Assembly: GCA_016858145.1 (NCBI GenBank)
Contig: JAEHOE010000092.1
Coordinates: forward strand, 186,001 to 250,000
Source: Edaphochlamys debaryana
Lineage: Eukaryota > Chlorophyta > Chlorophyceae > Chlamydomonadales
DNA: 64,000 nt
Reading direction: 5' to 3'
Each line of letters begins with the position of its first letter. Position 1 is the stretch's first letter. A program made the translations under genes and the position numbers. The notes below the pieces were generated by a model, which ran no database searches, had not been told where the DNA came from, and saw nothing but the letters and a program-made list of their open reading frames with translations. Positions 11,640 through 33,800 of this stretch are shown piece by piece.

Positions 11640-14600
11640 CTACGTCCGAGGCCGCTTGAAACCGCCCCGCCCCCCGCGGCCCCTTCCGCCCCTGCCACCA
11701 CCCGACCCCCTCTCCCGCTTCATCATCTCCATCTTCCGTTTCCGCCCCTCGGCCTTGCGCGCGCCGTGACGCAGCCGCGCCGCCGCCGCCGCCGCCGGAT
11801 CCAGCATCCCCCGTACGGCACTCTTCTTTCGGCGGTCCGTACGGCGGCCCTTCACGTGCTCGCGCGCGGCATTGTACGACGCCAGCAGCGTCTCGGCGCC
11901 CACCAGCGTACGGAGGTGACTCATCACCTCCTCCGCGAGCTGCCGTACGTCGTCCTCGACGACCGCGCCGGCGGCGGCCGGCGGCGCCGCCGCGGCCTCC
12001 GAGATGCGGTACAGCGGCCGCAGCAGTACGGGCAGGTACGGCGCTACGGCGGCGGCGCCCAGGGCGCTCGAGGCGGCGGCGATCCAGCGCAGTGCGGCGG
12101 CGCGCTGACGTGTCCGTGACCAGCGTGCGTCGTCCGCGAGGCGCGCCATGCGCCGCACGAGGCCGCGCAGGGTCAGACAGCGCGTCGCGACCTGGTCAGC
12201 CATGGAGGGGCCGCCCTCGCCGGCATCGTCGTCGCCGTCCCCATCCCCGTCCCCGCCCTCGCCGTCCGCTGCGCCCTCCTCCTCGGCCCCAGCGTGGCCG
12301 TTGGCCGTTGCACCCCCCTCCTCCTCCTCCTCCTCCTCCTCGTTCTCGCCTTCCTCGCCCTCGTCCACCTCCTCATCCTCATCGTCCCCGCCCCTGCCCG
12401 CCGCCGCAGAGCCGTTGGCGGCCGGCGCGGGCCCGCGGCTGCGCTTGCCGTCACGGCCCTGCTGCTCCGCCCCCGCCCCCGCCTGTGCCTCCGCGGGCGC
12501 CCCCCCCGCCGGCAGGTGCCGCACCAGGCTCACCAGGCACTTGACGGCCTGCGCGTGGGTTGGGAGGGAGGGGAGAGGCGGTTGGGAAGGAATTAGTTGG
12601 GAGGGAGTTGGAAGGAGTTGGGGAGGTTGGACGCGCTGTAGAGATATGGCATGCGGCAGCGAGAGAGGCCCCCGCGCAGCCGTCACTTGTGGCCCTGCAC
12701 TATGCGGACTGCCCCACCCTGACCCCAGGGTCAGCCCAAAGCCTCCCTCCACCCCCCACCCCCACCCCCACCCCCCCCACACGCACCTGCAGGCACGTCG
12801 CGTCGTCCGCCTCCTCGCACTCGAGCTGCAGCAGGAACGAGTACGCCAGCTGCCCAGCGCGTTCGCCCCCGCAGGGCCCCGCCCCATTCGCGCCGCCCTC
12901 TGCGCCGCCCGGAGCGGCCGCCGGGGCCCCCCCCAGCAGTCCGCCGGAGACGCGGGGGGCGGCCAGTCCGTACCCCACCAGCCTCGCCGCCGCCTTGCGC
13001 ACCCACACGTGGCGGTGCAGCAGAAGCCGTACGACGGCCTCCCAGATGGCGGGCGCGTACGGCGCGCCCGCGGCTGCCTCGGATGCAGATCCGGATCCGG
13101 GCCCAGGCCAGGCCAGCGCGGATCCAGATCCAGATCCGGATCCGGCCGCCACCTTCTCGAGCAGGATGAGGGAGTAGTAGGCCTCTTGCCATCCGGGGCA
13201 CGCGTCATCGGCGGCCGGGGACTCTCCGTCGGCAGCGGCGGCGGTTGGATCTTGGTCCTCAGACAGAGAGGCCTGAGGGCAACAGGGGCGGGAGGGGGGT
13301 TGGGGTTGGATCTGAGGGTGTGAGATCAAGGGCAACAGGGTCAGACAGGGATGGGGCTGGCTTCCGCAGAACATGTGTGATGCGTGTGCGGTGTGCGCTG
13401 GCAAAGGCTCAGAAGGAGCTTCGGTGTAGGAATAGATTTTCAGCACGTGTCACTCAGACGACGGTGAAATGTGGTTGAATCATCACAGCCGTGGGCGCGC
13501 ATATGAACGTGGGGGCAGTGTGTGTACGTGTAGGGTTGCTCATACGTCCGCAGGTTCGGTGGGGCTCAGATGGAGCTTGATAGAATAGGTTATCATCACG
13601 TCTCATTCAGACGACGGTGAAAATACTAGGCATCATCCCCGCCCCAGCAAGGTCCAGCAGAGTGCGCGTGCTTTCGTGCTCCCTGCCCCGTTTCGTAAAC
13701 TACACGTTTGCCGGCACCCTCAACCCACATCAGCTCTTCAGACACCCACGCCAATGTCAGCCCGCCGGCCCACCCCAACGCCCCAGTCCCAAACCCCGAA
13801 GCCCCAGTTGCCCCCTCCTCCCCCCCCCCCCCCCCACACCCAAAGCCCCAGTACCCCCCCCCCCCCCCCTCCCTCAGCCCCCCCCCCCAACACACACCTG
13901 GCGCTCCAGGATGCGCCGCAGCGCTGGCGCCACCTCGGCCAGGCGCCGGGTGAAGCGGGCGCCCTCCACCTGTCGGGAGGGAAGGGGGGGGAAAGGGGCG
14001 GCGAGGGGAGGGGGGCGAGGGGCGTCAGGGCATGAGAGGTCGTGCCCATCACTGCGGGACGAGTGTGGCTACGAGCCCAGGGCCACGAGCTCGGCCGCCG
14101 CCAGGAGCTCCGCAGAAGCAACAACCAAACCGTCAACAAACAACCGACCGGCCAACCGACAGCTCGCCAGGATTGCTGGACTCAGGCTGCCGACTACTGA
14201 GCGCCCAGACTTCTGACCGCCTTCCGAATCCACAACCACCTAGACACCATAAGCCAGCCGTACGTCGATTGCAACGACCAACCGTCAACAACCAAGCCAA
14301 CTACCAGCCGGCCAACCGACAACGGCGCCTCACCTCGGCCATGAGCCCCAGCGCCTGCGCCGCCGCCCGCCGCAGCGCCGCCGCCCCGCCGCCGCCCTCG
14401 CGCCCCATCCAGCCGCGGCAGTAGGCGGCGGCGCGGTCCAGGGGGGCGGGCTCGAGGCGGCCCAGGAGGGAGCGGAGGACCTGCGGGGGGGGGGGGAAGA
14501 GGAGGGGCGGGGTGAGGGGGAGGGGGTTGTTCGGTACCCGTGCCAATGGCGGGGAGTGGTGCGGCGTGCATGAGAGATTGTGCGGCGTACGGCACTGCAC

Positions 14601-17600
14601 CGCACCGCACCTGTGCGGCCGACGCCCGGGCCTTGGGCGCGGGGTCGTTGACCAGCCGCACCACCAGGGGCATCAGCAGCACGTCGGACTGGGCCTGGGG
14701 GGGTGGAGGGTGGAGGGGGGGGCGGTTAGAAGGAAAGGGCTGAGGGCTCGGGTTGAGGGGGAGGGTGGGTGATAAGGGTGGGGGGGCGCGGGTCGGGCGC
14801 GGGTTTGTGGGGAAGCATGCACAGGCACGCCTAGGTAGTGTGGTGGGGTCATCTTGAGGGCGCTCACGAGGCCCGAGCTGGCAGCGATCCACGGCTGGAA
14901 CCCGGGTTGGGCCCCGGTTGGGCCCCGGTTCGCCCCCATCCAGACCCCGGCTGGGCCCCGCCCACCTGCAGCACCTCGGCGGGGAACTTGGCCACCACCT
15001 GCCCCAGCATGTCCAGCACCTGACAGGGGGGGGGATGGGGATGGGGATGGGAAGCGGGATGAGACTTTTGTGGATCTCCCTAGTAGCATAATGGCGAGTG
15101 GCGTGTGGTGTTCTCAATGCGCCGGCAAGGCTCAGAAGGAGCTTCGGTGTAGGAATAGATTTTCAGCATGTCTTGATCAGACGACGGTGAAATGTGGTTG
15201 AATCATCACCGCCTTGCAAGCAAACGCGGACGTGTGCGGGCATTGCAAGTGCAGCGGTCGTGGAGTGAGTTGTGTGTGGGAAGGTTCGGTGGGGCTCAGA
15301 TGGAGCTTGATAGAGTAGGTTATCATCACGTCTCATTCAGACGACGGTGAAAATACTAGGCATCATCCCCGCCCCACCACGTCCTCCGTGCCGGTTATGT
15401 GCGCATGACTGCCCAGTCTCCTCCCCTCCCCTCCCCCCTCCCCGCTCCCAAACCGCGCTAGCGTCCGCAACAAAAGGTGAGCGCAGAGAATGCACGTGCG
15501 GTGTGCGCTGGCAAAGGCTCAGAAGGAGCTTCGGTGTAGGAATAGATTTTCAGCACGTGTCACTCAGACGACGGTGAAATGTGGTTGAATCATCACCGCC
15601 TTGCGAGCAACATGGGTAGCCGGTACACAGCGTAGGGTGCGTGAGGACACAGGTATGCGCCGGTGCCGGTGGTATAGCAGGTATGAGTTGCAGGGGGCAG
15701 CTCGCGTGGAGAGGCAAGTGTACGATGCGTGTGTGGGGCGCCGGAAATGGCTCAGAAGGAGCTTCGGTGTAGGAAATGTTTTCAGCACGTGTCACTCAGA
15801 CGACGGTGAAATGTGGTTGAATCATCACAGCCGTGGGCGCGCATATGAACGTGGGGGCAGTGTGTGTACGTGTAGGGTTGCTCATATGTCCGCAGGTTCG
15901 GTGGGGCTCAGATGGAGCTTGATAGAGTAGGTTATCATCACGTCTCATTCAGACGACGGTGAAAATACTAGGCATCATCCCCGCCCACCGTTGCGCTGCA
16001 CGCACGTGCCAATGCCGTTGAGCGCCCCATGCATTCCGCCCCAAACCTTCCCTTCACACCCCTGCCCTCGCCCCAGAGTGCGCACCCATCGCCAACCCAA
16101 CCACCCAACCACTCAACCGTTCCGCCCCAACCGCCCCAACCGTTCCGCCCCAACCGCCAACCGACCTGGAGGCGCCCGCTCTCGTACTCGTACTCGAGGT
16201 TGGCGAGCAGGAAGCCCAGGTGCTGCTGCAGCCGCGCGGGGCCCAGCGGGAAGTCGAGCAGGAACTGGAGGAGCGCGGCGGAGCAGGAGGAGCGGACGGC
16301 CGAGGACTGGGAGCGGACCTGACAGGGGGGGAGGGGGGAGAGGGGGGAAGGGGACGCAATGGGGGGAGGGAGGGGGGGATCAGGTGAGGGTGGATGAGCG
16401 CAAGTGATGGACTCGGGTGGATAGCAAGCGAGGGTGGATGAGGATGAGCGAAGGCAGCATGCCGCGTGCCATGACATGGGCCTCGTGCCGTAGTAAGAGG
16501 CGGCGGCGCAGGCGGATGTCGTACGTGTCGTACGTGTCGTACTCACCATGATCTGCTGCACCCGGTCCATGACGTCGTACACCTCGGGCACCACCACCCG
16601 CCGCCCCAGCAGCGCCCGCAGCAGCGCAAAGGCGGTGGGGGCTGGGGGGGGGGGGTGGAGGTTGGAGACGGGGTTGGGAGGGGTTATGCGGTGTCAGCAG
16701 TGGTACATGGCGTCAACACAATCCACAATCCAAAAACCGCCATCCCCGCTCCATGCGACTATATTCCACTGTACCCGCCTAACCCTTCCCCCTCCCCCCT
16801 TCCCCTCCTCACCCGCGCCCGCCTCCCCCAGGTCCTCGAAGGCCCAGCCCAGCAGGAATCGCAGCATGGCGGTGGTGGGGCGGTAGGCGGGGCAGTCGCG
16901 GAGGAGGGCGGCAAGCAGCCGGAAACACTCCTGAAAGGGGGTGACGGTTGGTGACGGTTGGGGGTGCGGGAGCATGGGTCAGGTGGGCGGGGGCAAGGGG
17001 GCCAAGGGTAAGGGGCTGCTGGGAATCACAATCACACTCTCCCCAACCCCTCGACACCCCCCCTACCCCCCACCCTTACCCCCCCTACCTGTGCGATGGG
17101 GTGTTGCACGTTGGGCACCTTCCGCAGCAGCGCCCCCACCGCCTTACCCGCCTCGGGGGCGGCGGAGGCCAGGCCCGGCAGGGGCAGGGGCACCACGGCC
17201 GAGAGGGTCTTGAGGGCGAGGGTCACGCAGCCGGCGTGGCGGCTGGGGTGGGGGGGAGAGGGGTGGGGGGGAGGGGTGAGGGAGTGGTAAGTGCGTGGTC
17301 AAGTGCTGTGGGGAAGGGGCCGGCTCTACCCCACATGGCAGCTTAGGCAGGGACCCTGGCCCCTCCCTCCCCGACTCCACCCACCTCCGCCGCCCACCCC
17401 ATCCTACCCTACCCCTCCGTGTTCCCCCTCCTCTCACCTCCTCAGCGATCGAACCAATACCGGAAGCGCCGGGTCCAGAAGTCCCAACAGCCCCCCCCCC
17501 TCTTCGACCCTCCCAACCTTCCTCCCCTCGCTTGAAACCCCCCTCCAGGCTCACCTCCTCAGTGACCGAACCAGCAGCGGAAGCGCCGGGTCGAGAAGGG

Positions 17601-20600
17601 CCAAGAGCTCGGGGGACCTCCCCGCCAGCACGCCCCTCCGCACGCTCGCCAGCAGCAACGTAAGGCAGAACTCGAGGACCAGCGTCTCGTGGAGGGTGGC
17701 GCGGCCGGCGGCGCCGTCGCCGGCGGCGGCGGCGGCGGCCCTGGCGGCGGCGGCGGCCCCGGGGCTGAGCCCGGCGGCGACGGCGGAGCGCGCGGGTCCC
17801 ACGGCGGCCTTGGCGGCGGCCCGTGCAGCCTCCTCACGGGTGAGGCATCCCTCCATCACCCCCACCACCAACTCCATGACCTGACAGGGGGGGGGGGGGA
17901 TGGGACAGGGGGAGAGGGATCAGGGGAAAGGTTTCGAAGCAAACGCTGAAGGGTCGGCAGCCCTTCGCTCATTCCGCCCCTTCCCCACCTGCCGACCCCT
18001 GGCCATAGCGGGGCCCCCGCCCCCCGCCTCCCGTTCTCCCCCCGCCCCCCCCCCATCCCCCCCCCGCCCGACGCCCCCCGCACGCCCGCACCTGCTTCGG
18101 CCCCGCCGTGGGGTTGGTCCTCAGCCCCCTCGCCGCGAACTGCAGCAGCCGCACCAGCTTAGCGCGGACCGAGGGCTGACCGGCCTGGTGGAGCCTGGGG
18201 GGGGGGTAGGGGGGGAGGGGAGGGGGGGGGGTTGATTGGGGCGGGGTGGTTTGGCCCGAGGGTGAGCAGCAGGGGGCACGCACCCGGGGTGGGCAACGGC
18301 TCAGCCAGGACTCGACAGCTCCCCCCCTTCCACCTCGCACGAGTCCCCCTCTCCCCTTCTCCCCCCCCCCACCGGTCCGTGACGGAGGACAAGAGCATGC
18401 GGGCGTGGGTGCGCAGCGTGACACCCTGGGGAGGGGTGGGGGGGAGGTGCTTTCAGGTCTTGAACGGGTAGGGGCCAGCGCCTAGCGGTACCGCAGCAAA
18501 ACCGGCTGGAGATTGCAGCACATCCACCCGCAAGCACGGTGGTAGGCTGAGCCATTCGGGCCCTCTCAGACCCCTCATCCCCGCGTTCCTTGGGCAGCAA
18601 GTGACTGGTCTCCAATGCGGGCGGGCGCTATGCCGAGCTACATCACACCTCCAGGGTCTCGCCGGGCTTCCTACTTGCTACGAATTCCTGGTTGCCTAAC
18701 GCAAGCCAATGCTGACACCTTCCCCACCTCCAGCTTCCCCACTCCCTCTTCACCCCCCCCCCCCCCCCACCTGTGCCAGCAGCTGGTAGGCCCCACCCAC
18801 TGGCGATGCCAGACATGCTGACGAGGCCCCCTCCCTCTCCACCATTCCCCCCCCTCCTCCCCTCCCTCCAACCCCCCCCCCCCCACACACACACCTGTGC
18901 CAGCAGCTGGTAGGCCTCGTAGGCCCGGCAGCGCTTGGCCTCCTTGTACTGGCCCGCGAAGGCGCCCACCTCCTTGGCCTCGGCGACCTGTCAGGGGGGG
19001 GGGGAGGGAGGGGGGGGGGGTTGGGCGGTTGGAGGGAGGACGAGGGGGCAGGGAGGACGTGTGGTCACAAGCAACGTCGTTTGCTCGCGCTCATGCCACC
19101 CTTGCCCGCGTGCTCCCGCCACCCCTTCCAGGGATGTTGCAGCCAGCTCAGAACCCCTGGAGTTCATGCTAGATCCGGATCTCACGTGGCCGAACAGATC
19201 CGCCTCCACCAGCGGCAGGCACATCTCCAGGCAGTCATCCAGCACGCCCACGGGCCCAGCGGGGTCCTCCTGGGGCCCAGCGGGCGGCTCTTCGTCTTCC
19301 TCGTCGTAACCCTCCTTGGCCGCCGCCGGGTCCTCCGCCGGCTCCGCCATTGCCGCCGCTGCAGCCGCCGCCGCAGACTCTCCCGCCGCCACCTGGGGTG
19401 AGCGCGGATGGATGGAGCGAGGGGTGAGGTCAGGGATAGAATATCGTGAAGTCTATTCGCCTTGATGCGAAGACTTGACGTGAAGACTAGTAGGAGCCTC
19501 AGGCCTCGAACTAGGACCACCGGTGTCAAGATTGCTGATTGGTGGATTCATGGTTGATGAGATACAGCAAACATCCAAAGAGTACGGCATGGGCCAGGTG
19601 GGCGCCGTACCTTGAGTACGGCCTCGAGTACGGCGTGCAGCGTGTAGCCGATCACGTGAGCCGTGAAGCCGCGGTCGGGCAGCGAGGCGCGCAGCACGTG
19701 GCAGCAGTACGGCATGTACGACGGGCCGAGCTCGGCCATCATGGACACCAGTACGGTGCGTGCGTCATCGCGGATTCGCTGCAGTCGGGCCTTGAGCAGA
19801 TTGGTCACACCCTGCGTGGATGGGGGGGGGATGGGAGGTGGGAGGCAAGGAGGGAGGTGGGAGGCATGGAGGGAGGTGGGAGGCATGGATACCCCTGATA
19901 CGCGCTCGCCCCTGTAGGCACATGACGCGCCCCACCCGCCGCCTCATCAAGGGCCACTCCCCACCTGCAGCGCCCTTGGCAGCTCCGCCCGCTCCGCCGC
20001 CGGCGGCAGCAGCCGCAGCAGCTTCACCAGCGCCAGCGCCACGGGCGCCCGCACCGCCTGGTCCGCCTCGCCGCCCTCGCCCCGCTTCGTCTCCACAAGC
20101 ATCTCGTGCAGGGCGGGCAGGATGCGCTTCAGCAGCACGCGCTGCACCTCGGCGGCCTCGGCGGCGGGGTCGTGAACGTAGGCGGGGGCGGGGGCGAGGC
20201 TGGGGTCCTCGAGGTCCAGGGCTTCCGCCTCGGCCTCCTCGGCTTCGGCATCCTCGGCCTCGGGCTCGGCGTTGGCTGCAGGCTCGGCGGCTGCAGCGGT
20301 GCCGGCCGCGGCGTCCGTGGCATCGGCGGGGGCAGCAGGAGCGGCAGCCGCTGCGCCCTCCGCTGCGGCCTCGCCGCGGCTGCGCTTCACACCCGCTGCC
20401 GCCGCCGGTGCGGGTGCGACCGCCGCCGCCACGGGCGCCGCCGCCGCCGGCGGCGCCGGCGCGAATTCGTCGTCCTCGGTCGGCAGAGGGAAGTGGAACG
20501 AGTCGATGATGGCGCACACGGACCGTACGAGCGGCTTGGCGGGCCGCTTACGCATGAGCCGTACGAATTGGTTGAGCAGTTGCTCGTACTGCGGCCAGCG

Positions 20601-21193
20601 CAGCACGCCCGCCACGGCGCCCAGCGCGCCAACCGCCGCGTCGGTTACGTTGGCCTCCTTGTCCTTGTCGCTCTGCTTCTTGTCGTGGGCCCGGCCCTGG
20701 TCGGGCCCGCCCAGGCCCGCAGCCTCCTCCACGAATTGCTGTACGGCAGGAAGACGAAGGGGCGCGGGCGCGGGTTAGAGAGGAGCATTGGGGCAAGCGC
20801 CAATCGCAAGCATGAGTTCACGCCCATCTCTCCTCTTTTCCACGCCCCGTGGTGGAACAGGTTTAGCAGCCGGCTCCCTCTTTAAGGCTCTCCTCAGTCC
20901 TCCTCCCCTCAACTCCTCGACCCCCGCCCCAGTGTGGAACAGGTGTAGCAGCCGGCTCCCTCTTCAGGCACACGCCTCCAACCCCCACCCCCCCTCCCCC
21001 ACGCACCTGCAGAAGGGGCACCACCACATCAATCAGCGCCCGCCCGCCGCAGGGGCCGCCAGCGGTGCCGGCGTCGGCCTCGCCAGCGGCAGCGGTGGCG
21101 GCAGGCACGATGGCGGCGCCGCCAGCTCCTGCTGCCGCCGCCGCCGCCTGGTCTCGGAGGACCTTGGACAGCTTGTTGAGGGCGCGGGTGCGC
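11640..21193 (-). CDS. UTP20: UTP20 exons 25-42 (C-terminal third)
   Basis: Exons: 21193-21007, 20738-19965, 19811-19611, 19392-19186, 18987-18895, 18425-18373, 18194-18092, 17880-17555, 17242-17089, 16930-16813, 16641-16547, 16318-16166, 15019-14966, 14694-14611, 14480-14334, 13969-13898, 13272-12787, 12548-11640. Exon 27 (LGPSYMPYCCHVLR, HVIGYTLHAVLE) and exon 36 (LLDFPLG, EYEYESGRL) are diagnostic of UTP20. The last exon has an Asp/Glu-rich tract (about residues 3345-3375), a helical segment ending VGAETLLASYNAAREHVKGRR, and a Lys/Arg- and RGG-rich tail, typical of nucleolar RNA-binding proteins. Stop TAG at 11642-11640. Confidence 0.9.
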
Positions 21194-24100
21194 CTGGGTG
21201 GGTGGGAGGGAGGGGGGGGCAGGAAACGGAGGACGGTTGAGGGAGATAGAGAAGGGGGAGGAGCGAGGCATGATCGCGGCCGGCGTGGGAGATGTGAGGT
21301 GGGGGGGGGAGATCAGGGAGGGCGAGCACGGAAGGAGCAGCGGGTGCCAGCAGAGCAGAGCAGGGCGGCACGCATAGTGCAGGTTGTAGAGGTCATGTAT
21401 TGAGTATCGAGGCGGCATCAGAGATTTTGATTTTCATTTGTGTAGCGGATCATTCCCCGCATGTCACGGTATTGTTTGCATCATTGCCGGTCAGAACTCG
21501 CTGGGAAGTGTGTGGCTGTTGTGCGGAGCACATGCTGGATGCGGATAGTACAGACGTGCCGTACGGGCGAGCATCGAACTGTCAACCAAATCAACAGAAA
21601 TAGTACGGCAGGTTGAGAGTGTGGTACCGGCCAACCGCCAACACAGAGACAGGCACAGCCTCCAGATGCCAGGGTCGCTCCCCAAGCCAGCCGCACCCCG
21701 GCCTGTACCCCTCGGCCCCAAGTCCCAGGTCGATTCCAACCGGCCCCCTGCACAGCTCAAGACCCTAACCTCCCTCGGACGTTTGTAATCCACGCTGGCC
21801 TCCTGCTGAGCTGACGTGCTGACTCTTTCCCCTCATGGGAGAGCCGGCAGCTCGTGTGCCCGCTGGCCTTCAAACACACGACCCCCCCGCACACACACCC
21901 TACCCACACACCTCTACCCACCCCCCACCCCCCCTCCCCACACAAGGCTCCGCATCTGAAGCCGGCCGGCTAATCACCGCGCCTAAGACTCCCAGGCTCA
22001 TGCGAGCAGCCCAACCCTACCCACCCTCCTACCCCCCTACCCCCACCTGTGGCTCTGCAGGTGCGCCACGTTGGCAAAGAAGTCCGTCTCGGGGTCGTCG
22101 GACAGCAGGGGGAGCAGGTCGGGGAACCTGGGGGGTGGGGGGGTGGGGGGGAGAAGAGTGTGGTGGCAGGATAAGGGAGCGCAGGCGGGGAAGGGGGGAA
22201 GGTACGTTCTGGTGCTTAAGCCCAGGGTGTGGGTGTGTGGGCAGCAGAGGGGGGCCTTTGGGGCCCCGACCGCAGCCCCCGCAGTAGCGCCAGCCCTCAC
22301 CCGCACCCCTGCCCGTAACCCTGCCCCCAGCACCCCTCCTTCTCCGCGTCTACCCCCCCCAATGCCCCCCCTTACGTCCCCTCCAATCCTCCCCCCCCAC
22401 CTCTTGGGTAGGGCCACCACCAGTGCCCTCAGCAGGGCCAGGTGCTCCTGCCGTACGGCCAGGGTGGGGGATCCCAGCTGCGACTTGAGCTGGGGGTACA
22501 GCACTCGGCCCGCCAGCCGCAGCAGGCCGTCGGATCCGCCGTCCGCCGCATCCCCGGATTCGGGTCCAGATACAGATACAGATCCGGATTCGGCCAGGCG
22601 CGCCTCGGCCTCGCCCAGGGCCACCACGAGCGCCTCGAGCGCAGCCGCTGACGCTTGGCGCAGGGACAGATCGGATCCGGATCTCAGATCATGGAGCGCC
22701 GCCAACAGCAGTGGCAGGGCTTGGAGCCGGCCCATGCCGGCCCATGCGCCGCCGGATGGGGATCCAGATCCTGATTCGGGCGCCGCCGCGTCTGACTCTG
22801 CGGTTACGGTTACCAGTTCGTACGATCCGGACGTGAGCCTGCCGTACGCCGCCAGGCGGCGGTCGTAGTCCACGTCATCCAGGGAGGTTGGGTTCCAGGC
22901 CGTGAGGTCGGCCAGGAGCTGAGGGTACGGCAGGGTACGGCAGGAGTCAGTACGGGACAGGCCGGTAGGGTTCAGGGCGTCGGGAAACAGGGCGGGGCAC
23001 GAAGGCCAATGCTTACTCATATCGCACAAAGGCGGAGGGACATTTCCCTTCAACTGCACCGAAGAGCCCTTCGCAAGGGACCATCACAGACGCCGTTGTC
23101 CCTGCTCCTCCCCCTCCCCTTCCCTCTGCTCTCCTCCCCTCCCTCCTCCCCCCCCACACACACCTGGGCTGTGGGCCGCATGCGGGGGATGAGTCTCGCC
23201 ACGGAGGCGTATGCGGCCGCCAGCGCCGCGCGGGGCTCGCGGGTGGTGAGGCGGATGGCCCACAAGGACATGGCCTCGCAGTACCTGGGGTGAGGTTGGA
23301 GAGGGGGTTGGGGTTGGGGGGGTAGGACGGAGGAGGACGGGGGTGGGGTGGGTGGGATGGGGAAGAGCTTGGGGATGGGGACACGAGAGAGAGGTGGGCA
23401 TTGTTGCGGGGGGCAGCTCTCGTAGGGCGGCAAGCGCACGATGCGTGTGTGGGGCGCCCGAAACGGCTCAGAAGGAGCTTCGGTGTAGGAAATGTTTTCA
23501 GCATGTCTTAATCAGACGACGGTGAAATGTGGTTGAATCATCACAGCCGTGGGCGCGCATATGAACGTGGGGGCAGTGTGTGTACGTGTAGGGTTGCTCA
23601 TACGGGTCCTGGTTCGATGGGGCTCAGATGGAGCTTGATAGAGTAGGTTATCATCACGTCTCATTCAGACGACGGTGAAATTACTAGGCATCATCCCCGC
23701 CCACCGTTGCGCTGCACGCACGTGCCTGATGTGCGATGCCCAACCCCCACTGAGCCCTTGCCAGTACCGTTCCACGTCCCACCCTCCTCCTAGCAGCGGT
23801 CCCTCTCTCAATCCCCTTACCTGCTTCCCCATCGGCCCCCTGCCCCAGACCTCTCACCCCTCGATCTCCACTCTGTTTCCCCTTTCTCACCGCTCTCAAT
23901 CCCTCTCCCCTGCTTCCGCTTGGCCCTCTCCCCCCTCCCCCCTCTCTCCCCTCCCCCCCGCCCACCTCTCCTCTGCTGCGTCCGGCCAGCTCCATAGGGC
24001 AGCTCAAGCAGGGTCCCTGGCCCTTCCCCCCCCAAACTCCTCCTCCCCTTCTCCCCCAAGCCCCACCCACCTCTCCACCGCTGCGTCCGGCAGGTCCCCC

Positions 24101-27100
24101 GGTGCCAGCCGCCCCCAAAGCGCTGCCAGTGCACACAGCGCACGGCTCACGCCCGACTCATCCAGCCGCCCGCCCTTGGCGCCCGCCCGCTGTTTGGCGC
24201 TACGGGCACCTGCGGGGTTGGGGGAAAGAGGGGAAGGAGGGGGAGAAGAAGGCGGGAAAGAGCGGGTTAGGGGCTTGGCATGGAGGCTGGGGCTTGAGTT
24301 AGATTGTCGCAGGGAGGCTGGAGGGGAGGAAGAAGGTTTGGAGGGAAGGGGCGCCGACTTTCCGGGAGCGGCGAGCGCAGGGTGTGGGTGCGGTGTGCGC
24401 CGGCAAGGCTCAGAAGGAGCTTCGGTGTAGGAATACGTTTTCAGCACGTGTCACTCAGACGACGGTGAAATGTGGTTGAATCATCACCGCCTTGCGAGCA
24501 ATATGGGTAGCCGGTACACAGCGTCGGGTGCGTGAGGACAGAGGTATGCGCCGGTGCCGGTGGTATAGCAGGTGCGTGTTGCAGGGGGCAGCTCGCGTGG
24601 AGCGGCAAGTGTACGATGCGTGTGTGGGGCGCCGGAAACGGCTCAGAACGAGCTTCGGTGTAGATAATGTTTTCAGCATGTCTTAATCAGACGACGGTGA
24701 AATGTGGTTGAATCATCACAGCCGTGGGCGCGCATATGCATGTGGGGGCAGTGTGTGTACGTGTAGGGTTGCTCATACGGGTACTGGTTTGGTGGGGCTC
24801 AGATGGAGCTTGATAGAGTAGGTTCTCATCACGTCTCATTCAGACGACGGTGAAATTACTAGGCATCATCCCCGCCCCACCACGTCCTCCGTGCCGGTAT
24901 GTGCGCATGACTGCCCGTTCTCCTCCCCCCCGGCTCCCAAACCGCGCCCCCTTCTCCCCCCCCGCCCCCCCGCTCCCTCCGCAAGCCACTACGGTAGCGC
25001 CGCCTGTCCGCACACGCGCAACCCTCATCCCTCCCTCTACCGGTAGTGTATCGAAGCAGTTGGGCTCAGATGGAACTTGATAGAGAATGGTTTTCGTCAC
25101 GTCTCGGAAAACGTTTCACAATCATCCCTGCCCAACTGCGTTCGGATGCTGTGTGCAGGCACTTAGGCTCGCACCCCACCTCAGACCACAGCCAGCCCAT
25201 CTTCTCCCCCCATCTTTTACCCTTCTCCTCCCCCCCCGTATTCCCTCCCCCCTTTGCCTCCCCTCTCTTGCCTCCCCCCTCTTCTTCCCCCCTCTTGCCT
25301 CCCCCCCCCTTACCTGCTTGCGACAGCAGCGCCACCAGCCCCTCCGCCAGGCTCGCCGCCAGCCCCGGGTCCCCCACGTACGCCCCCAGCCGCTCCAGCA
25401 CCGCCAGCTCGCGGTGCGCGGAGGAGCCGGCGGCGCGGCGGCGACCCGCAGCCTGGGGGCAGAGGGGGGTGGGGGAGGAAAGAGTGGGAGCGGCATCGGA
25501 GGTGGGAGAGTTGCGGGAAAGAAAGGAGCGGGGAGGATTTTGCAGACTACTCCGCAGCCATGGTCAGTCTATATCAAAGCCGGCGTATGTCCACCCGGGC
25601 TCTCTCCGCCCCCAATCCCCATCCCCAGACCCCAAACCCTCCCCCAACCCATGCCCCATCTCACCCGCCCCCTCCCGCCCGGCCCCGGCGCCGCCCAGGC
25701 CTCCGCGATGGCGCTGTTGAGCGCCGTGAGCAGTGGGCCCAGCCCCGGCAGCAGCACGCGGCGGAGCAGGGCCTCGCCGCAGCCCAGCAGAGCGTCGAGC
25801 ACGTCCAGGACGGTGGCGCTGGAGGGGGGGGCGGTTGGCGCAGACAGTTGGAGCGGTTAGGGCGCGGTTGGCGGGTAGAGAGGAGGAGGAGGACGAAGAG
25901 GAGCACCAAAGGCAGTAGGAGCACTACAGACCCCCTGAGCATCCGCAATGCTATGGCTAAACCTCCCACCCCGGTCCCGTCAAGGAAACGATCCGCGTAG
26001 GCCCGAGCCCAGCCCCCATGCCGTACTCACCGCACGATCTCCGTACACCTGCCCGACCCCAGCATCGCCACCGTCGCCCGCATCAGCGCACTGCCCAGCC
26101 CCCGCTGCCGCCACGCCTCCTTCCCCCCTTCGTCCCCCTCGGATGCGCCGTCCAACTCCATAGCATCCGCCCCCATCGCCAAGGCGGGCGGGGGCGGCGG
26201 CGCGCCGCCCGCCGCCATTGCGGCGGCGGCCGCCGCGCGCGCGGCGGCGGCGGTGGCGGCGGCGGCCGCGGCGGCGGCGCCGGCGGGGCGCAGCAGCGGC
26301 AGGGTGGCGTCGGGGACGGTGGGGAGGTCGCCCAGGAGGCGGGCCAGGCCGGGGCTGAGGGAGAGCGACAGTACGCACTCCAGGAGCGGCGGCTCCCTGG
26401 GGGGGGGGGCAGGGGTCGGGGTCATGGGGGGCGTCAGGGGCGAGGGGACAGCACCAGAGTGTCACACAAGCTCAAGCCTCTTGCAGGGGCGGGGGCAGGG
26501 CCGAGAAGGAGGCAGCGGAGGTGAGCGGGTCACATATTCTCAAGCCTCTCGCTGTTGTTTTGGGCTTTACACCCATGATAAACCCCCTCCCCATCCTCCC
26601 TCCTCACTTGCTGGCCGCCGCCTCCAGCGCCATCCGCGGCAGCAGCGGCTCCACCGCCCCCAGGAACACGCCCCAGCCGGCGTTGAAGTCGGCCGAGGGG
26701 GAGGCGGGGAAGCGCAGCCACACCTGAGCGCGACAGGGGCGGGGGGGAAGGGGATACGGCGGGGGATAGGGGAGGTGTTTGTTGCTGAGCGGGAGCGCGC
26801 CGACGCCAGGGAAACCTTGTATGGAGAGGTACATACCGCCGCGTTAACCAAATGGGGGAGGGGGGTGTTTGAAACTGTGCGGGAAAAGGTGCATGCCAAG
26901 CGTGACCAAGTCGTGCGTCGACCCCTCCCTACCCGCACACTCCACCCCCACCCCGGGTCCCGGCTAACCCCACCCGCGCCCACCCGCTCTCACCTGTGCC
27001 AGCAGCCGCAGTGAGCCCGTGCGGACCTCCCGGCTCCGGTCCCAGGGACTGCCGCCAACAGCAGCCTTGCCGCCCTCCTCCTCCTCCTCCTCATCGTCAT

Positions 27101-30800: not shown

Positions 30801-33800
30801 GGCGGGGGAGAAAGTCAGGAGACTGGTCGGGACTGTTAAACAGGGCTCCAACCGTGACGTCCACCCCTTTGCACCCCTAACCTGGCCCCCCTAACCAGGT
30901 CACTCCCGCCACCCCACACACAGATACACCGGACGGCTCTTCGCTGCGCCCACGGACTCCCCGGCTCACACGAGCAGCCCTTCCCACAACCTCCACACAC
31001 CCGTTCCACCCTTCCCACAACCTCCACACACCCTTTCCACCCTTCCCACACCCTTCCCACACCCTTCCCACACCCTTCCCACCCTTCCCACACCCTTTAC
31101 ACACCCTTTCCACCCTTCCCACACCCTTTACACACCCTTTCCACCCTTCCCACACCCTTCCCACACCCTTTACACCCTTCCCACACCCTTTACACACCCT
31201 TTCCACCCTTTACACACCCTTTCCACCCTTCCCACACCCTTTACACACCCTTTACACCCTTCCCACACCCTTCCCACACCCTTTACACCCTTCCCACACC
31301 CTTTACACACCCTTTCCACCCTTCCCACGCCCTTTACACACCCTTTACACCCTTCCCACACCCTTCCCACACCCTTTACACCCTTCCCACACCCTTCCCA
31401 CACCCTTTACACCCTTCCCACACCCTTCCCACACCCTTTACACCCTTCCCACACCCTTTACACACCCTTCACCCACCTGCGCCCTGAACTGCAGGCCGTG
31501 TGCCAGGGCCTCCGAGGCGGGCGCCCACAGCGGGCTGAAGCGCACGCACAGCACGCCCAGCATGCCGTGGGCAAAGGCGGGGACCAGGCAGCTCGGGATC
31601 CTGGGCGGGTGGGGAAGCGATGGAGTGGATGGGGGTCAGTTGGTGGGTGGGGAGTGGGCATCGAGCGCTTGTGGGAAAAGGCTAGTCGAGCATTGGTCAG
31701 AGGCTCGGCAGGTGGAGGCGCCGCCAAGAGGCAGCGGAGCAGATTAGGGACGAGGCACTCCCGGTTTGTCTTTGCAACATCAGACTGACTGGACAGGGCT
31801 GGGAGTCGCTCGCCCACGCCAACTACCGTACAGTGTCGCCGTACAGTACCGCACCTGCCGTACTCCATGTACGTCTTGAGCCGCCCCATGGCCACCGACC
31901 ACTTGCGCCCGCTCTCAATGGTGGGCGGCTTCGCGTTAATGCCGTACAGCACCTCGATCAGGTCACACTTCGGCCCGGCGGCGCCCGCCGGCACCAACGC
32001 CGCCGCCGCCGCCGCCGCCGCGGCTTGGTCACTCTTCGCGCCGCCCTTTCCTGCCTTTCCGCCCTTGCCCGACGCGGCGGCGGTTGGCGGCGGCGGTTGG
32101 TGCAGCGCCGCGATGGGGTCCCTGGGGTCGGGCCCCAGGGCCTCCAGGTGGGGCTGGTCGAAGCAGCACAGCAGGCGCAGCACGGCAGCACGCAACGCCT
32201 GCGACTCGGCGCTCAGCAGGGGCGCCAGCACGGCCACCACCTCGCTCAGCCGCGCCACGGACAGCAGCGCGCGGGCCGACTCGGCGGCGGCGCCGCCGCT
32301 GGCGGCGGCCGTCAGGCCCGCCCGCACCGCCTTGAGTAACGACCCGGCGGCGCGGATGCTGGCGTAATCAGCGCCGCCGCTGACGCTGGCGCCGCCGCTG
32401 CCGCCGGCGGCGGCGGCGGCTGCCGCCGCCGCCTGCTGGTCCAGGACCCACTGCAGCGACGCCTCCGCCGCGTCGACCAGAGATCTGGACAGCCCCGCCG
32501 CCGCTGGCACCGCCGCCGCCGCCGCCGGCTGGGACTTCAGAAGCTCCGCCAGCTGCTCCGTAGCCTCCGCACGGAGCAACAGCAGTCCGCCAAGCCGAGG
32601 CGGCGGCGGCGCCGCCGCCGCCGTCGGCACCTGCCGCAGCGCCTCCGTCGCCGCCGCCAGTACGGACTCGCAGGCCTCGATGGCCTGCGGTACGTTCTCA
32701 CACGCGTACGGCAGAAGTCCAACCGCTGCCCACGCGCCCGCGATGCCCTTCGCCTCGTCGTACGCACGTGCGTCCTCGGCATCGGCGGCCGCCCGCCAGG
32801 CCGCCGCCAGTTGCCGTACGTGCGCCGCCAGCCGTACGCCGCCGGGCTGGGCGGTCATGAGCAGGGGCAGCGCCGACCGCGCGGATCCAGATCCAGATTC
32901 GGGGGGTTGGATCAAGGCGCACAGATCCCGGAGCAACAGCAGCGCCGCCCCGGCGTAGTCCGCCTGCCCACAAGCTCCCGCTCCCGCCGCGGCCGCCGCC
33001 GCCGTAACGCCCGCAACCGATCCTGCTGACGTGGACGGCGGCGGCACCATGAGGATCCGACCCAGGCATCCCATCATGGGGGCCCCAAAGATCCGCGCAA
33101 TATCTGCGTTACTGGGATACACCATGAGCGATTTGACAAAGGGCAGGACCTCCGAGGCCGGGGGTCGGCCGAAGGCGGGGGCCCAAGCCGCGGGGCACTT
33201 GCTCAGCGCCGCCGGGCCCTCGCTCGCGCCCGCCTGGCGAACGTGGCTGTGGATGATGGATCGCGCCAGATCCAGTACGGCGTACGACAGGGACACGTGG
33301 ACGAGATCCGCCGCCTCGCCGTCGGGGCTCTCCTCTCCGTTTTGGTGGTGGGAATGGCCCCCATCGGAGGAGGAGCCGGGACTGGGGTGGCCCGCTTCGG
33401 CAACCGACCCTGGCGACGCAACTCCCGGCTGTTGGGATCCTGCCGTACCCGCCGTACGGCCGGCGGTTGGGATCCAGACGGCGGGCTGCATGAGCCGCGC
33501 CATGAGGTCGAACAGCGGCGCGTAGTCATCCACGCGAGATCCGCGAAAGTACGACACGGACTGCGCGAGCAGCAGCAGGATCCGGCCCAGGCTGCGCCCG
33601 GCGGCCGCCGCCTCCGCCGACAGAACCCCGGATCCAGATCCAGATCCCGCCGCGCTGGATTCGAAGGAGCGGAGGCGCGAGGTCGTCTCTCCCAGGAGAG
33701 CCGACCAAAGCTCCCCGCCCCTGCCCCTACGGAGGTGGTCCAACAGCCGATCCAACGTCACACGTGCCACGGCGGCGGCCCGCGCGCGCAGCTGCTCCCG

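What the first reader, a model, noticed from the sequence alone, without database searches (positions are those of the whole stretch)
13402..25149. UTP20 introns host a multi-copy cluster of box C/D snoRNAs
Seven family A and six family B elements of about 90 nt sit in four introns of UTP20, all in the host orientation. Each has C, D', C' and D boxes with 7-base D'-C' spacers and guide segments of about 19-27 nt. Terminal stems covary between copies: GCAAGGC:GCCTTGC versus ACGGC:GCCGT in family A, and GGTGGGGC:GCCCCACC versus GCAGTTGGGC:GCCCAACTGC in family B. Intronic snoRNA clusters are known in green algae. A set this amplified inside a U3-processome gene would link expression of a processome scaffold to its guide RNAs.
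Basis: partly seen in the sequence, partly recalled or inferred. Interest (0 to 1): 0.9.

Follow-up and report, generated by a model that had tools for sequence, protein, structure and literature searches.

The report
Intronic C/D snoRNA array in UTP20
A green alga carries thirteen copies of two related guide-RNA genes in four introns of one ribosome-assembly gene; they look like guides for one spot of the large ribosomal RNA, and such intron clusters are already a known habit of green algae.

Summary
Thirteen box C/D snoRNA-like elements (7 A, 6 B) lie on the minus strand in four GT-AG introns of a UTP20 gene on the same strand. The best named UTP20 match is from Astrephomene, a chlamydomonadalean green alga. 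Twelve of 13 have D' and C' boxes 7 nt apart; B6 lacks D'. Stem covariation holds only in part: A1 and A4 keep 3 bp. An architecture scan found 10 of the 13 and nothing else in 64 kb.

The likely target is new here. The D' guide shared by A and B1-B5 pairs over 12-13 bp with 25S rRNA, and A's D guide pairs over 11 bp (9 in A7) with the abutting stretch, giving sites 11 nt apart at one hairpin tip. These are large-subunit guides, not guides of UTP20's own small-subunit processome. No copy was found elsewhere in the genome, and many cores are conserved where flanks are not: local duplication of probably functional genes. Clustered snoRNA genes are known from Chlamydomonas, so this is a new member of a known kind. 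Expression and methylation are untested.

The parts
13273..13897 (-). UTP20 intron I1 (625 nt, GT-AG) with A1 and B1
   Evidence: GT-AG ends, flanking exons in one open frame
15020..16165 (-). UTP20 intron I2 (1146 nt, GT-AG) with A2, B2, A3, A4, B3
   Evidence: the protein alignment to 7mq8 runs through this junction
23285..24070 (-). UTP20 intron I3 (786 nt, GT-AG) with A5, B4; of two similar donor sites the one that gives an open frame
24210..25313 (-). UTP20 intron I4 (1104 nt, GT-AG) with A6, A7, B5, B6
13409..13486 (-). A1, C box to D box; terminal stem 3 bp; A4-like upstream flank joined to A3-like downstream flank
15132..15209 (-). A2, C to D, 7-bp stem GCAAGGC:GCCTTGC
15519..15596 (-). 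A3, C to D, 5-bp stem
15752..15828 (-). A4, C to D; stem only 3 bp
23468..23544 (-). A5, C to D, 5-bp stem ACGGC:GCCGT
24410..24487 (-). A6, C to D, 7-bp stem
24643..24719 (-). A7, C to D, 5-bp stem; D guide weakened to 9 bp
13566..13637 (-). B1, C (GATGAT) to D, 6-bp stem
15296..15367 (-). B2, C to D, 9-bp stem
15908..15979 (-). B3, C to D, 4-bp stem in the fixed register
23624..23695 (-). B4, C to D, 4-bp stem in the fixed register
24799..24870 (-). B5, C to D, 9-bp stem
25066..25126 (-). B6, diverged copy: D' box and D' guide lost, D guide nearly kept, 10-bp stem with different letters
11727..11954 (-). UTP20_C match (in open frame 11643-13325), downstream of I1 in the transcript
   Evidence: PF23099 E 3.7e-6, 26.9 bits, just under the 27-bit cut-off
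22808..22921 (-). UTP20_N match (in open frame 22040-23083), downstream of I3 in the transcript
   Evidence: PF07539 E 3.1e-8, 32.9 bits, cut-off 27.6

Best explanation
This is an array of intron-encoded box C/D snoRNA genes that grew by local duplication and transfer between introns of one host gene. UTP20 pre-mRNA is spliced, the introns are processed, and each C/D core is trimmed to an RNA of roughly 75-95 nt (inferred). Families A and B (B6 excepted) share one D' guide that pairs with 25S rRNA and would direct 2'-O-methylation of a C in GCGA[C]GGUGAAAU (complementarity shown, methylation inferred). Family A's D guide pairs with the abutting stretch and would direct methylation of the A in UGGG[A]GCUUCGG, 11 nt upstream, so one A molecule can pair on both sides of the tip of one 25S hairpin. 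Family B has another D guide whose target is unassigned. Several copies keep all parts; A1, A4, A7 and B6 show partial decay or divergence.
For: Architecture found only here in the window and never in 40 Markov sequences. Host introns by open frame and UTP20 similarity. D' guide plus box, 16 nt, identical in 12 of 13 elements and found nowhere else in 142 Mb at up to one mismatch. Pairing with the genome's own 25S fragment: D' 12 WC + 1 GU in A, B4, B5 (11 + 1 in B1-B3); D of A 10 WC + 1 GU in A1-A6, 9 WC in A7; none of 364 mock CTGA guides from the window exceeds 8.5 against the same 93 nt, where the real ones score 9.0-12.5. The fragment matches LSU_rRNA_eukarya at E 7.5e-17. Cores stay alike where flanks are unrelated: A2/A3 core 94%, flanks 26% and 12%; B2/B3 core 100%, flanks 44% and 59%. 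All 18 weak C/D-family matches of Rfam that lie on the array's strand fall on these elements, 10 of 13 of them (each with E 0.65 or worse). Arabidopsis has six snoRNAs whose two guides hit sites 11-18 nt apart (PMC8053127, section 13 read).
Against: No RNA data. No Rfam family at gathering score in the window. A1 and A4 have 3-bp stems. Family B's D guide has at best 7 bp in the 25S fragment. Only 93 nt of this 25S region and 2.5 kb of other rDNA could be tested; the fragment is a displaced single copy on contig C23, may differ from working rRNA, and was not listed in a gathering-level scan of its 9.5-kb surroundings. The region was chosen by recall, so the shuffle counts are not unbiased. Core conservation could partly reflect gene conversion.
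Confidence: 0.87

Rival explanations
1. Mostly dead copies: one or two working snoRNA genes, the rest duplicated intron sequence on the way to decay.
For: A1 and A4 have 3-bp stems, B6 lost its D' guide, A7 has a mismatch in its D guide; several modules are 93-95% alike including flanks, so they may be young.
Against: Cores are 87-100% alike among A1-A7 and 96-100% among B1-B5, also in pairs with unrelated flanks.
Confidence: 0.25
2. A mobile (retroposed or transposon-like) snoRNA element that inserted repeatedly.
For: Similar modules of about 260-510 nt sit in four different introns with exons between them.
Against: The matches found all lie in this one locus and are all in host orientation. 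A-tails and target-site duplications were not tested.
Confidence: 0.05
3. Chance or low-complexity repeats in GC-rich introns rather than RNA genes.
For: The introns are rich in simple G/C runs, and most of the 20 repeat families shown are such runs.
Against: 0 in 40 Markov sequences and no other hit in 64 kb; guides pair with 25S rRNA next to the right boxes.
Confidence: 0.01

Closest known systems
Chlamydomonas reinhardtii snoRNA gene clusters (Chen et al. 2008, Genetics 179:21; not held)
   Same: Several related snoRNA genes together in a green alga. PMC7671301 (passages) says the genes there are mainly in polycistronic clusters, usually producing multiple isoforms; the title of the survey says 'intronic gene clusters' (reference list). 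That most clusters are local tandem duplicates is recalled.
   Different: Host gene, sequence family and spread over four introns could not be compared; whether the C. reinhardtii UTP20 gene holds snoRNAs is unknown here.
Arabidopsis dual-antisense C/D snoRNAs SnoR19, SnoR22, U24, U36, SnoR44, SnoR29 (PMC8053127, section 13 read)
   Same: D and D' guides of one RNA pair with two rRNA sites separated by 11-18 nt; family A's predicted sites are 11 nt apart.
   Different: By recalled yeast and plant numbering, not computed, the two sites here are not among the plant 25S sites tabulated in PMC11542601 (section 6 read).
Rfam snoZ221_snoR21b (RF00300) and SNORD33 (RF00133)
   Same: Best weak snoRNA-family matches, on the right strand and span.
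   Different: 19.1-24.3 bits against cut-offs of 44; no evidence of common descent.

Membership tests
Box C/D snoRNA | C box RUGAUGA and D box CUGA at the ends | tested here: met
   D exact in 13 of 13; C exact in 7 of 7 A, one deviation in 6 of 6 B
Box C/D snoRNA | Short terminal stem bringing C and D together | tested here: inconclusive
   4 bp or more uninterrupted in 11 of 13; A1 and A4 have 3 bp
Box C/D snoRNA | Internal D' and C' boxes with short spacer | tested here: met
   12 of 13 with a 7-nt spacer; not in B6
Box C/D snoRNA | Guide of at least about 9 bp next to D or D' with position 5 opposite the modified nucleotide | tested here: met
   D' 12-13 bp in A1-A7 and B1-B5; A's D guide 11 bp (9 in A7); B's D guide not met on 25S (7 bp); B6's D guide 9 bp only with spacer rDNA
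Box C/D snoRNA | Stable ~70-100 nt RNA bound by fibrillarin | not testable with these tools
   no RNA data
Intronic homologous snoRNA cluster as in Chlamydomonas | Several related snoRNA genes inside introns of one protein gene, same orientation | tested here: met
   13 elements in 4 introns, all minus strand
Known Rfam snoRNA family | Gathering score | tested here: not met
   none in the window
UTP20 host gene | UTP20 domains and similarity | tested here: met
   PF07539 over its cut-off; PF20416 (21 of 27 bits) and PF23099 (26.9 of 27) below theirs; 7mq8 E 1.3e-19; Astrephomene 78% identity over 42% of query. Against: one open frame alone found no UTP20 chain and the I3/I4 fragment no Pfam family

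The most novel reading that the evidence does not exclude
Family A RNA is a bipartite clamp as well as a methylation guide: its two guides cover 23 contiguous nucleotides on both sides of one 25S hairpin tip, so it could hold that hairpin open during large-subunit assembly. Its high copy number in a ribosome-assembly gene would then supply it at near-stoichiometric dose, and family B would be a branch that kept the shared D' guide and retargeted the D guide.
Probability: 0.15. Interest if true: 0.55.

Novelty: new member of a known kind. Interest (0 to 1): 0.33.

Why it matters
It gives a chlamydomonadalean example of snoRNA copy growth across several introns of one host, with a copy that looks recombinant (A1), a diverged copy that lost one guide (B6), and two families sharing one guide but not the other. 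That is a compact record of how guide RNAs duplicate, recombine and change target. The predicted 25S sites are directly testable by RiboMeth-seq.

Tried and rejected
Rfam at gathering score gave nothing in the window. Of the 44 permissive matches in 13000-25600, 22 are miRNA models, 19 C/D snoRNA families (18 on the elements, one elsewhere on the plus strand) and 3 others. Covariance models R1 and R2 were built but cannot be run on this genome and were not used. A genome-wide pattern for perfect C, D' and C' boxes gave 7 matches against 11 for the reversed control, so it gives no baseline for other clusters; how unusual 13 copies are in this genome is therefore unknown. SNORD14 gave two sub-cut-off matches. 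A 24-nt conserved 25S motif found nothing at up to 2 mismatches. Viral contigs and one scan of genome contigs held no match to the 25S patterns. Solved-structure searches with single open frames 22040-23083 and 31461-34097 found no UTP20 chain.

Family B's D guide was tried on both rDNA pieces: B1-B5 reach at most 7.0 on the 25S fragment and 6.5 on contig C287; B6's version reaches 8.5 (9 bp) on C287 at 1647, which lies in the spacer between 5.8S and 25S. An 8-bp match to the recalled motif UUGAGCUUGAC is possible but rests on memory. The Chlamydomonas survey is not held. A paper search for snoRNA + UTP20 + intron listed 9 papers; none of the titles or abstract openings shown describes UTP20 as a snoRNA host (listing only). 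Other paper listings and term look-ups in PMC9483110 and PMC8351944 gave nothing on these sites.

Bias to note: the 25S fragment was found with a pattern chosen from recalled 25S sequence after seeing the guides, so the shuffle counts (4 and 17 of 20000) must be widened to a whole-rRNA search space, by my estimate about 60-fold. The gap letters CGACG were not in the pattern and still match the D' guide.
Full report
What is there. The window is part of contig C92 of a 142-Mb assembly. On its minus strand lies a UTP20 gene. In ten open frames scanned, UTP20_N passes its cut-off in one (and is weak, E 0.0076, in another), UTP20 scores 21 of 27 bits and UTP20_C 26.9 of 27. Hand-read exons, six around I1 and I2 and three around I3 and I4, join in one open frame each; the first has a single stop at the far end of its last stretch, whose low end I set arbitrarily at 12700. 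The first spliced product matches UTP20 chain 7mq8 (human, by recall) at E 1.3e-19 and three other UTP20 chains at 2.4e-14 to 3.4e-14; the second, 133 aa, matched no Pfam family. Of 10 proteins found, the best is from Astrephomene gubernaculifera, 78% identity over 42% of the query, a species of the order Chlamydomonadales. The source is therefore most likely a related green alga.

The elements. DNA searches of the whole genome with one A and one B element return 7 A and 6 B places, all in this locus. B6 finds itself and three B copies. The 16-nt D' guide plus box is present 12 times, all here, none elsewhere at up to one mismatch. The tool scores only the best candidates, so diverged relatives elsewhere are not excluded. 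In transcript order the basic module is B then A. I2 and I4 share 511 nt at 92.8%, I2 and I3 324 nt at 93.5%, I1 and I2 266 nt at 95.5%. A1 joins an A4-like upstream flank (98% over 60 nt; 32% to A3) to an A3-like downstream flank (90% over 30 nt; 57% to A4), as expected from unequal recombination between A4 and A3.

More than chance. A scan for C box, D', C', D and a stem of at least 4 bp found 10 of the 13 elements, nothing else on either strand of the 64 kb, and nothing in 40 first-order Markov sequences. It missed A1 and A4 (short stems) and B6 (no D' box). The weak Rfam snoRNA matches fall on the same 10 elements. Conservation is confined to the cores in many pairs: A2/A3 94% core with 26% and 12% flanks; A3/A5 91% with 38% and 13%; B2/B3 100% with 44% and 59%. 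In other pairs one or both flanks are also 90-99% alike and say nothing about selection.

Stems. A2 and A6 pair over 7 bp with one set of letters, A5 and A7 over 5 bp with another, and B6 over 10 bp with letters that differ from B2 and B5 (9 bp). A1 and A4 keep 3 bp; A3 has 5, B1 6, B3 and B4 4 in the fixed register.

Target. The genome holds one displaced 25S rRNA fragment on contig C23. Searched alone it matches LSU_rRNA_eukarya 2435-2571 with 70 bits, E 7.5e-17, well aligned over 2435-2525, although a gathering-level scan of the surrounding 9.5 kb had listed nothing. Against it the D' guide forms 13 bp (12 WC, 1 GU) in A1-A7, B4 and B5, and 12 bp in B1-B3, putting the C of GCGACGGUGAAAU at position 5. 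Family A's D guide forms 11 bp (10 WC, 1 GU) in A1-A6 and 9 in A7, putting the A of UGGGAGCUUCGG at position 5. The two duplexes share one G, together cover 23 nt, and the two nucleotides are 11 nt apart. In the family's structure line this stretch is the tip of one hairpin: the D target on its 5' side and loop, the D' target on its 3' side. Of 364 mock guides (every other CTGA in the window) the best reached 8.5 against observed 12.5 and 10.5; shuffled guides reached the observed scores 4 and 17 times in 20000. Since I picked the region by recall, widen those by about 60-fold for a whole-rRNA search; the adjacency of the two matches is a further, uncounted coincidence. Family B's D guide scores 7.0, reached by 1565 of 20000 shuffles: no target assigned. 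Its letters are nevertheless nearly kept in B6, which has lost the D' guide.

Reading. In Arabidopsis most guide-target pairings are 10-14 bp, and six snoRNAs use both guides on sites 11-18 nt apart (PMC8053127, section 13). Family A fits that pattern. The targets lie in the large-subunit rRNA, so the proposed link of the UTP20 scaffold to 'its' guide RNAs does not follow; an important fraction of mammalian snoRNAs, and many intronic ones of Ostreococcus, sit in genes for ribosome biogenesis (PMC7671301, passages).

Novelty. Chlamydomonas snoRNA genes are mainly in clusters, usually with multiple isoforms (PMC7671301, passages); the original survey is not held, and I recall its finding that most clusters are intronic and made of local tandem duplicates. 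This is therefore a new member of a known kind, spread over four introns of one gene; whether 13 copies is more than usual in this genome was not settled. A plant survey reports that land-plant snoRNAs, with few exceptions, have no identifiable homologues in green algae (PMC5122169, passages), which fits the lack of Rfam hits.

Noticed in passing
L016 6600-6692 (G000:C23:754599-754691): A displaced ~93-nt fragment of 25S rRNA, single copy in the assembly, next to a long inverted repeat seen in the printed sequence; it may be carried by a mobile element.
   Followed up: partly
L014 1-2500 (G000:C287): A 2.5-kb contig holds the 18S 3' part, 5.8S and the start of 25S; letters in stretches that I recall as conserved look odd, so it may be a degenerate or error-rich rDNA copy. 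The rest of 25S was not found with the motifs tried.
   Followed up: partly
window 23966-24000 and 24071-24105: Two similar exon-edge stretches (ACCTCTCC...GCTGCGTCCGGC) about 105 nt apart near the 5' splice site of intron I3; only the outer one gives an open frame. Possible alternative 5' splice site or duplicated exon edge.
   Followed up: partly
G000:C48:154675-154800 and C44:120135-120260: Two U14 (SNORD14)-like loci, 56.3 and 51.3 bits, below the family cut-off of 64.
   Followed up: no
   Followed up: no
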